From positions 1 to 23,059 of IMG/VR virus record IMGVR_UViG_3300028920_000278: 23,059 bases of DNA; one strand, given 5' to 3'. Shown here piece after piece: positions 7,068 through 7,954 of the stretch. Source of the stretch: a virus. Every line of letters begins with the position of its first letter. The first letter of the stretch is position 1. The notes below the pieces were generated by a model. That model was not told where the DNA came from, made no database searches, and worked only from the letters and a program-made list of their open reading frames with translations. The position numbers and the translations under genes were made by a program.

Positions 7068-7858
7068 CTACCTCCGACCCCTGGCCCTTGGCCTGATGCT
7101 GCCGCGCCCCCTGACGCGCTGCTTGGCCTTTTCCTGGGCCTGCTTTTCAGCACGGGCTGCCGAGTCGATGCGCATGACCTCGTTAAAACAGGTGCCGAGC
7201 TGGCGCTGTATCGTCGGGCCCCAGTCACCCCAGACCTCGAGCACGGCCTTGATGTCGGCCCAGCAGGGCCCCAGGTAGCCGTTGAGCCCGGCGTGCCTGC
7301 AGCTGTACACCCGCATGAACGCTGACCAGGCCCGAGCGGTCGACGGCAGCGGCCGGGGCATGGTGACCCCGGCCTCTCTGGTGACCTCGGCAATTGTTGC
7401 CTGTTTTGCACCTGCTACCACCCGCCAGTAATCGAGTGAGCTGGGGCCGGTCCCGAAATAGAACCGCACCAGCTCGGTCAGTTTTTTTCTTCGACCTCAA
7501 CCGCTTTCGAGGCCAGGTCGGTGGCCGCTGTCCAGAGCAGCTTGCTGAGCGCTGGCACCGTGGCCAACGTGTCGCGGTTTTCGGGGGTGAACGGCACCGG
7601 GTTGCCCGCCGCATCCAGCAGGTTTTCCCAACCCTCGACCAACTCACTGAGCACCCGCTTGCCGACCTTGAGGGCTCGGGCCGTATCCTGCTCGAGCCCC
7701 TCGAACTTGACGCCCTCGGCCTGCAGCTTGGCCATCAGCTCAGGGGTCAGCGGCCTCATCTTGAAAACCGCAACACTGTCGGCAAACTCGACCTCAACAT
7801 CAACCGCGTTGGGTGAAAACAGCCCCTCACCCACCATGACATCACTTTTGATTTTCAT
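7068..7858 (-). CDS. Tail assembly chaperone, long form by -1 frameshift (gpGT-like)
   Basis: A -1 slip on A AAA AAC (7487-7481) joins the 126-aa frame to an open frame that runs to 7068. The predicted fusion has 263 aa with joint EEKKLTELVRFYFG. The extension (about 137 aa) contains SLDYWRVVAGAKQATIAEVTRE, a middle segment with WSAFMRVYSCRHAGLNGY, and an Arg/Lys-rich tail (ERS-like EKQAQEKAKQRVRGRGSIRPR). No ribosome binding site of its own is needed: the only start-like codon in that frame is GTG 7469 and lacks a good site. In lambda-like phages the long form binds tail tube subunits to the tape measure complex. The -1 signal, order and lengths all fit. Confidence 0.85.
7438..7487 (-). promoter_or_regulatory. 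Programmed -1 ribosomal frameshift signal
   Basis: The slippery heptamer A AAA AAC (7487-7481) is in the correct frame, immediately before the TGA stop (7480-7478). After a 5-nt spacer (TGACC, 7480-7476) a stem forms between GAGCTGG (7475-7469) and CCAGCTC (7444-7438). A second 4-bp helix lies inside (CGGT/ACCG). This gives the usual slippery site, spacer and stimulator set. The seven-A run is striking in otherwise GC-rich DNA. Confidence 0.88.
7478..7858 (-). CDS. Tail assembly chaperone, short form (gpG-like)
   Basis: The 126-aa acidic protein lies between tail tube and tape measure genes, where siphophage tail assembly chaperones are always found. It coats the tape measure during tail assembly and is not part of the finished virion. 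Features are MKIKSDVMVGEGLF, a VEVEFADSVAVFKMRPLTPE segment, and helices (LMAKLQAEGVKFEGLEQD, RALKVGKRVLSELVEGWENL, VPALSKLLWTAATDLASKAV). The start ATG has GGAGGTG 5 nt upstream. The 3' end reads GAA GAA AAA AAC TGA; this contains a slippery heptamer at which part of the ribosomes shift to make the longer form. Confidence 0.88.
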   Translation of the reverse strand: MKIKSDVMVGEGLFSPNAVDVEVEFADSVAVFKMRPLTPELMAKLQAEGVKFEGLEQDTARALKVGKRVLSELVEGWENLLDAAGNPVPFTPENRDTLATVPALSKLLWTAATDLASKAVEVEEKN

Positions 7859-7884: not shown

Positions 7885-7954
7885 GGTGCCCCTCGAGCGG
7901 ATTGAACCGCCCAGCCCTGGGGCATGAACCAGGGCCGCCACCGGCAGGGGCACC
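7885..7954 (-). ncRNA. Cloverleaf-like (tRNA-like) intergenic RNA structure
   Basis: Read on the minus strand, 70 nt fold into nested helices with almost no free junction bases. P1 is GGTGCCCCT with AGGGGCACC (9 bp). A small GCC-GGT-GGC hairpin follows. Then a 7-bp arm GCCCTGG/CCAGGGC has loop TTCATGCC, and a 7-bp arm TGGGCGG/CCGCTCG (two wobble pairs) has loop TTCAAT. The last arm resembles a tRNA T arm and directly abuts P1, as in tRNA. The middle loop contains CAT like a methionine anticodon, and a C plus CCA follows the 7-bp core of P1. The D-like arm is too short, the middle loop has 8 and the T-like loop 6 nt, so a normal tRNA is unlikely. No T tract follows, so it is not a standard terminator. 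Confidence 0.45.

What the first reader, a model, noticed from the sequence alone, without database searches (positions are those of the whole stretch)
7885..7954. Compact tRNA-like RNA fold in the tail tube / chaperone intergenic gap
One of only two real non-coding gaps in a packed operon holds a 70-nt element with a 9-bp closing stem, two 7-bp arms and a mini-hairpin, joined with almost no free bases. The last arm stacks on P1 and has a T-arm-like loop, the middle loop carries CAT, and C plus CCA follows the stem. Loop and D-arm sizes are wrong for a normal tRNA. It could be a tRNA remnant, a tRNA mimic, an RNase P or RNase III processing site that separates the tube mRNA from downstream messages, or a partial transcription block.
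Basis: partly seen in the sequence, partly recalled or inferred. Interest (0 to 1): 0.7.

Follow-up and report, generated by a model that had tools for sequence, protein, structure and literature searches.

The report
tRNA-like RNA between two phage tail genes
Between the tail-tube gene and the tail-chaperone gene of an uncultured phage lies a 70-base stretch whose transcript should fold into a miniature transfer-RNA shape, probably descended from a tRNA gene and most likely used to mark off or process the tail-tube message, although that use is inferred and untested.

Summary
At 7954-7885 the RNA is predicted to form a 70-nt cloverleaf: 9-bp P1, 3-bp mini D-arm with GGU loop, 8-bp arm with UUCAUGCC loop, and 6-bp arm with T-loop-like UUCAAU. 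It is the second most stable 70-nt locus of the window and the only compact strong cloverleaf. A descriptor scan of 678 kb finds only this element, its copy in one relative, five tRNA or tRNA-like hits and one weak chance hit; controls give none. The anticodon arm matches a recurrent phage tRNA-Met(CAT) with one extra C. It is not a canonical tRNA (ARAGORN and Rfam reject it); its architecture is closest to mascRNA/menRNA. Only one relative (about 92% identical) has it; there the three changes spare every pair, but the CCA is lost. The gap is not cleanly non-coding: a 36-codon ORF with non-coding-like codon usage spans it. Most likely it is a tRNA-derived, cis-acting element that punctuates the tube/chaperone junction as a stable 3' end or processing site, with RNase P the natural but unproven enzyme. 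A translational-coupling switch on the chaperone Shine-Dalgarno site is a real rival. Two sequences are too few for a covariation test.

The parts
7885..7954 (-). tRNA-like cloverleaf RNA element (whole)
   Evidence: MFE -46.6, z -4.15; rank 4 of 22,989 windows on the strand; copy in L002 3804-3873 with the same MFE structure, z -4.00
7946..7954 (-). P1 (acceptor-like) 5' strand GGUGCCCCU; pairs with 7893-7885
   Evidence: identical in L002
7885..7893 (-). P1 3' strand AGGGGCACC; its GGCACC can also pair with GGUGCC at the chaperone Shine-Dalgarno site
7937..7945 (-). P2 mini D-arm GCC-GGU-GGC with two G in the triloop
   Evidence: identical in L002
7913..7936 (-). P3 anticodon-like arm, 8 bp, loop UUCAUGCC (7928-7921) with CAU at 7926-7924
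   Evidence: CCTGGTTCATGCC-CAGG is the anticodon arm of phage tRNA-Met(cat) genes in 8 of 27 exact-match contigs
7895..7912 (-). P4 T-arm-like arm, 6 bp, loop UUCAAU (7906-7901)
   Evidence: R57-like position 7903 is A here and G in L002
7855..7965 (-). 36-codon ORF spanning the gap: ATG 7965, TGA overlapping the chaperone ATG (ATGA); doubtful as a gene
   Evidence: codon log-odds -0.7 against 16.9 +/- 7.3 for real gene segments; still open in L002
7975..9015 (-). upstream gene: tail tube (phrog_290, annotated 'minor tail protein')
   Evidence: E 3.7e-55
7478..7858 (-). downstream gene: tail assembly chaperone, Shine-Dalgarno GGAGG just upstream
   Evidence: phrog_313, E 1.8e-4; -1 slippery site at its 3' end

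Best explanation
It is a tRNA-like RNA element on the sense strand of the late structural operon, probably descended from a phage tRNA-Met(CAT) gene that lost its linkers, shrank its D-arm and gained perfect stems. It acts in cis as operon punctuation. The cloverleaf forms at the end of the abundant tail-tube message, gives it a protected, structured 3' boundary (exonuclease block and, through the tRNA-like elbow, a candidate RNase P or RNase Z cut), and separates it from the chaperone and tape-measure message, which are needed in far smaller amounts. Supported by computation: the fold, its rarity, its tRNA hallmarks, its strand and place, and its persistence in a relative. Inferred: descent from a tRNA, processing, 3'-end protection and the expression step-down.
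For: The fold is exceptional on the transcribed strand and in the relative. Synonymous recoding of the overlapping ORF reaches the observed energy in 1 of 2,000 cases. A descriptor (UUCRA loop closed by G-C, T stem of 4 bp or more, acceptor of 7 bp or more, MFE cloverleaf) finds 8 places in 678 kb on both strands: this element, its relative, three tRNA loci in L074 and L075, two tRNA-like loci in L049 and L072, and one weak chance hit in L073; reversed and complemented controls give 0. The anticodon arm CCTGGTTCATGCC-CAGG recurs in ARAGORN tRNA-Met(cat) genes of 8 phage contigs. The three changes in the relative keep all pairs: G.U to A-U at 7936, U to C at the position-32 equivalent, A to G at the position-57 equivalent. 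Stems changed at 1 of 52 sites against 49 of 347 third codon positions of the tube gene, p 0.012. Only two gaps exceed 20 nt; they lie just after the capsid gene and just after the tube gene, normally the most abundant structural proteins, and both hold strong structures. RNase P is reported to cut phage M3 RNA, C4 RNA and T4 gene 32 mRNA (PMC11143913). mascRNA, with the same linker-free plan, is an RNase P and RNase Z substrate (PMC11693755).
Against: No RNA data exist. Only two sequences carry the element, so covariation is untested. P1 plus P4 is 15 bp, longer than the 12-bp acceptor/T stack of a normal tRNA, and G7954-G7953 pair with the would-be C73-C74, which should hinder RNase P. CCA is not conserved. 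With 30 nt or more of tube 3' end included (window) or 60-100 nt (relative), P1 is predicted to be lost in most folds that also include the chaperone start. Distant relatives have 0-30 nt here and no element, so it is not needed by tail operons in general.
Confidence: 0.42

Rival explanations
1. Translational-coupling switch. P1 of the cloverleaf and a helix over the chaperone Shine-Dalgarno site compete for the same GGCACC. While ribosomes cover the tube 3' end, the cloverleaf forms and the site is free; without tube translation, P1 opens and the site is sequestered.
For: The GGUGCC of P1 recurs at the Shine-Dalgarno site (GGAGGUGCC). In both phages predicted ensembles flip from P1 0.97-0.99 (short upstream context) to GGCACC:Shine-Dalgarno pairing of about 0.7-0.96 (long upstream context), while P3 and P4 stay formed.
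Against: The flip needs different lengths of upstream sequence in the two phages, and the Shine-Dalgarno site is only 58-78% paired. Energies at this scale are unreliable and folding during transcription would favour the cloverleaf. It does not explain the tRNA hallmarks.
Confidence: 0.17
2. tRNA-gene relic without a present function: a tRNA gene dropped into the junction and is decaying.
For: The anticodon arm matches phage tRNA-Met; D-arm, linkers and variable loop are gone; CCA is not conserved; it is absent from distant relatives.
Against: Stems are perfect and stronger than in a real tRNA. Changes avoid stems (1 of 52 against 14% at third codon positions, p 0.012). Decay would break pairs rather than improve them.
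Confidence: 0.16
3. Unusual working tRNA or tRNA decoy: a CAT tRNA with an 8-nt anticodon loop that survives, or soaks up, host tRNA-cutting defence enzymes.
For: The anticodon loop has the tRNA-Met sequence plus one C. Phage tRNAs are proposed to escape anticodon nucleases through changed anticodon loops (PMC10264068).
Against: Not called by ARAGORN at default or relaxed -ps settings (only -ps50 gives a poor, different fold). The Rfam tRNA family is not among matches up to E 10. No U8, variable loop or normal D-loop; the would-be discriminator is C, not A. It sits in a late structural operon rather than a tRNA cluster.
Confidence: 0.13
4. Small coding gene: the 36-codon ORF (ATG 7965 to TGA 7855) is translated, perhaps as a coupling leader peptide, and the fold is a by-product of GC-rich coding.
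For: ATGA overlap with the chaperone, GAGG 7 nt upstream of the ATG, still open in the relative, 5 of 8 changes synonymous at third positions.
Against: Codon log-odds -0.7 against 16.9 +/- 7.3 for real segments; only 1.7% of real segments score lower. No meaningful homologue in phages. Third-position excess p 0.11. Synonymous recoding almost never reaches this fold (1 of 2,000). In the relative a 6-nt deletion puts GAGG 1 nt from the ATG.
Confidence: 0.1

Closest known systems
mascRNA / menRNA (Rfam RF01684), tRNA-like RNAs cut from MALAT1 and MEN beta
   Same: Cloverleaf without the eight tRNA linker residues, shortened D stem-loop with two G, long anticodon-equivalent stem, T-loop UUCRA (PMC11693755; sub-threshold alignment)
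   Different: Scores 22.3 and 18.2 bits against a gathering score of 42.5 (E 1.8 over the whole window); P1 9 and P4 6 bp instead of 7 and 5; 8-nt CAT loop; phage operon rather than vertebrate long non-coding RNA. Probably convergent shape, not kinship.
Phage tRNA-Met(CAT) genes (e.g. L074 7097-7171, L084 8651-8726)
   Same: Anticodon arm CCTGG-TTCATGC-CCAGG apart from one extra C; T-arm core GGTTCAATCC (L074); GTGGC at the D-loop of L074
   Different: The element has no linkers or variable loop, a mini D-arm, a 6-nt T-loop and a longer acceptor, and is not accepted as a tRNA
RNase P substrates in phage and operon RNAs (M3 RNA, C4 RNA, T4 gene 32 mRNA)
   Same: Structured element inside a longer phage transcript that could guide RNase P (PMC11143913)
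   Different: Cleavage here is untested; no conserved CCA; longer acceptor/T stack
Intrinsic-terminator-like hairpin after the capsid gene of the same operon (10830-10805)
   Same: Strong structure just after an abundantly needed structural gene
   Different: Simple hairpin with a U-run there; a cloverleaf without a U-run here

Membership tests
Canonical tRNA | Called by a tRNA finder / matches the tRNA covariance model | tested here: not met
   ARAGORN default none, -ps none, only a poor different fold at -ps50; RF00005 not among matches up to E 10
Canonical tRNA | 7-bp acceptor, 4-bp D-stem with 8-11-nt loop, 7-nt anticodon loop, variable loop, 5-bp T-stem with 7-nt loop | tested here: not met
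   9 bp; 3 bp with triloop; 8-nt loop; no variable loop; 6 bp with 6-nt loop
Canonical tRNA | T-loop UUCRA closed by G-C; YU before the anticodon; GG in the D-loop | tested here: met
   UUCAA / UUCGA, UU-CAU / CU-CAU, GGU in the window and in L002
Canonical tRNA | CCA end, aminoacylation | tested here: not met
   The CCA in the window is CCC in the relative; charging is not testable here
mascRNA / menRNA | Match above the Rfam gathering score | tested here: not met
   22.3 and 18.2 bits against 42.5
mascRNA / menRNA | Linker-free four-way junction, small D-arm with two G, T-loop | tested here: met
   Predicted structure compared with the published description
RNase P processing site | Cleavage at the base of the acceptor-like stem | not testable with these tools
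   Needs an enzyme assay or RNA end mapping
Intrinsic terminator | GC-rich hairpin followed by a U-run | tested here: not met
   The stem is followed by CAUAACACAUUG; none called there
Protein-coding small ORF | Codon usage and conservation like the neighbouring genes | tested here: not met
   Codon log-odds -0.7; third-position excess p 0.11
Conserved structured RNA | Compensatory base changes across relatives | tested here: inconclusive
   One relative only: one compatible change (G.U to A-U), none disruptive

The most novel reading that the evidence does not exclude
A tRNA-derived, linker-free cloverleaf of mascRNA architecture working inside a bacteriophage late mRNA. It would be, to my knowledge, the first phage example of this minimal tRNA mimic, used either as an RNase P punctuation mark or as a nuclease-resistant tRNA decoy with an 8-nt CAT loop.
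Probability: 0.2. Interest if true: 0.75.

Novelty: new variant of a known kind. Interest (0 to 1): 0.5.

Why it matters
If it is processed, it would show a phage turning a tRNA into mRNA punctuation between two tail genes that must be made in very different amounts. It would also give a bacterial, genetically accessible counterpart of the linker-free tRNA mimics known from MALAT1 and MEN beta, and it would test how far RNase P tolerates a stripped tRNA shape.

Tried and rejected
DNA similarity in phages and plasmids: the 1,538-nt tube-to-chaperone stretch had no match in phages; the 116-nt gap gave only chance-level hits. The tube protein found one close relative in IMG/VR and none in genome contigs; the capsid protein found only distant loci in genomes. 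The exact 19-mer hit L022 is an unrelated AT-rich contig, a chance match. An alignment of tubes from distant phages was too diverged to search with. Model R1 over 72 loci found only the window and its relative with significance; one weak match in 398 genomes (L078) is a chance-level hairpin, not a cloverleaf. Intrinsic terminator rejected (no U-run). Transposon with the 9-bp P1 as terminal inverted repeats considered: no target duplication seen by eye and no other copies. Known ribozymes and Rfam motifs: none at gathering score. On the whole window the mascRNA match (E 1.8) ranks with unrelated weak matches, so family kinship is not claimed. The pattern was built from the element's own loops, so finding tRNAs with it is not independent evidence; the descriptor scan and the anticodon-arm search are the better tests, though about 30 of the loci scanned came from that pattern search, which enriches them for tRNAs.

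Full report
What was checked. The window is a 23,059-base virus record whose large structural genes (terminase, portal, capsid, tail) all lie on the minus strand. The finding lies between the tail-tube gene (9015-7975, phrog_290) and the tail chaperone gene (7858-7478). The gap is 116 nt; the next largest gap is 55 nt and the others are 18 nt or less. The RNA that matters is therefore the minus strand, 7954 to 7885.

The fold. The minus strand folds at -46.6 kcal/mol, z -4.15, with no shuffle as good in 200; the plus strand folds less well. The structure is a near-perfect four-way junction: P1 9 bp (7954-7946 / 7893-7885), P2 3 bp with a GGU triloop, P3 8 bp with loop UUCAUGCC, P4 6 bp with loop UUCAAU, and one free G before the P1 3' strand. 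Folding every 70-nt window of both strands puts it second among distinct loci. It is the only closed three-armed cloverleaf below -32 apart from its own reverse strand. Synonymous recoding of the reading frame that overlaps it reaches this energy in 1 of 2,000 trials.

tRNA likeness. The hallmarks sit in the right arms: GG in the first loop, UU before CAU in the second, UUCRA closed by G-C in the third. I scanned 678 kb of held viral and bacterial DNA, both strands, for a UUCRA arm joined to an acceptor stem of 7 bp or more that folds into a closed cloverleaf. The eight hits are this element, its relative, phage tRNAs in L074 (two) and L075, two tRNA-like hits in L049 and L072, and one weak chance hit in L073. 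Reversed and complemented controls gave none. An exact search for the anticodon arm without the extra C (CCTGGYTCATGCCCAGG) in IMG/VR hit 27 contigs, and in 8 of them the site is the anticodon arm of an ARAGORN tRNA-Met(cat) gene. The version with the extra C occurs only in the relative. So descent from a phage tRNA-Met gene is likely but not proven; global alignments are too gapped to show it.

What it is not. ARAGORN does not call it at default or with -ps. Rfam's tRNA family does not match at E 10. The best sub-threshold match is mascRNA-menRNA at 22.3 bits against a gathering score of 42.5, and over the whole window that match is at chance level (E 1.8). The relative gives 18.2 bits and a weak tRNA-Sec match. 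There is no U-run, so it is not an intrinsic terminator. Membership in any of these families is therefore not claimed. The architectural match to mascRNA and menRNA is close, however: no linkers, small D-arm with two G that contact the T-loop in the crystal structures, long anticodon-equivalent stem (PMC11693755).

Comparative evidence. One close relative exists in IMG/VR (L002/L021, tube 99% identical, DNA about 92% identical). It keeps the element with three changes in 70 bases: G.U to A-U at the base of P3, U to C at the position-32 equivalent, A to G at the position-57 equivalent. None breaks a pair. Stems changed at 1 of 52 sites, against 14% of third codon positions in the tube gene (p 0.012), while paired against unpaired sites in the gap give p 0.064. 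These are suggestive, not proof. The CCA of the window reads CCC in the relative, so an encoded CCA end is not maintained. Distant phages with phrog_290 tubes have 0-30 nt at this place where the following gene is annotated, so the element is specific to this lineage.

A reading frame across the gap. An ORF of 36 codons runs from ATG 7965 to a TGA that overlaps the chaperone ATG. Its codon log-odds are -0.7 against 16.9 +/- 7.3 for real segments of these genes, no meaningful homologue was found, and its synonymous excess is not significant. It may still be translated as a leader, so the gap should not be called cleanly non-coding.

How it most likely works. The only two gaps above 20 nt follow the capsid gene and the tube gene, and both hold strong structures: a terminator-like hairpin after the capsid gene (10830-10805) and this cloverleaf after the tube gene. 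Capsid and tube proteins are normally the most abundant structural products (general knowledge). I therefore favour a 3'-boundary or processing element that separates an abundant message from a scarce one, with RNase P as the natural enzyme, given that it is reported to cut phage M3 RNA, C4 RNA and T4 gene 32 mRNA (PMC11143913). Points against it are the 15-bp P1/P4 stack, the paired would-be leader bases and the missing CCA in the relative.

The main rival mechanism. The 3' strand of P1 (GGCACC) can pair instead with GGUGCC at the chaperone Shine-Dalgarno site. Predicted ensembles of both phages contain a P1 state with a largely free Shine-Dalgarno site, and a state in which P1 is lost and the site is partly paired. 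Which wins depends on how much tube 3' end is available. This could couple chaperone translation to tube translation. It needs compensatory-mutant reporters to settle.

Verdict. The structure is real by computation and tRNA-like (about 0.85). Descent from a tRNA is probable (about 0.6). The punctuation role is the best guess (0.42). It is a new variant of a known kind, of moderate interest, limited by the lack of relatives and of RNA data.

Noticed in passing
window 7487-7478, minus strand: A canonical -1 slippery heptamer A AAA AAC directly before the chaperone stop TGA; the -1 frame continues into the 7469-7068 ORF, as expected for the G/GT-type chaperone frameshift.
   Followed up: partly
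window 10830-10802, minus strand: 11-bp GC-rich hairpin followed by UUUU in the 55-nt gap after the major capsid gene; terminator-like and kept in the relative with one change, in the loop. PaMx28 has an annotated terminator at the same place.
   Followed up: partly
window 7890-7885 and 7869-7856: GGUGCC occurs both in P1 and at the chaperone Shine-Dalgarno site, so the same GGCACC can pair with either; conserved in the relative.
   Followed up: yes
L074, L082, L084, L086, L087, L092, L096, L101: A recurrent phage tRNA-Met(cat) with anticodon arm CCTGG-TTCATGC-CCAGG (G37, C38) in eight IMG/VR contigs, some near-identical.
   Followed up: no
window 7974-7966 against L002 3787-3792 region: The relative lacks 6 nt (GGCGGC-type repeat) between the tube stop and the element; this removes an upstream competitor that weakens P1 in the window.
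   Followed up: partly
window 9015-8979: The listed GTG start of the tube gene overlaps the upstream gene (9425-8979) by 37 nt; its true start may lie further downstream.
   Followed up: no
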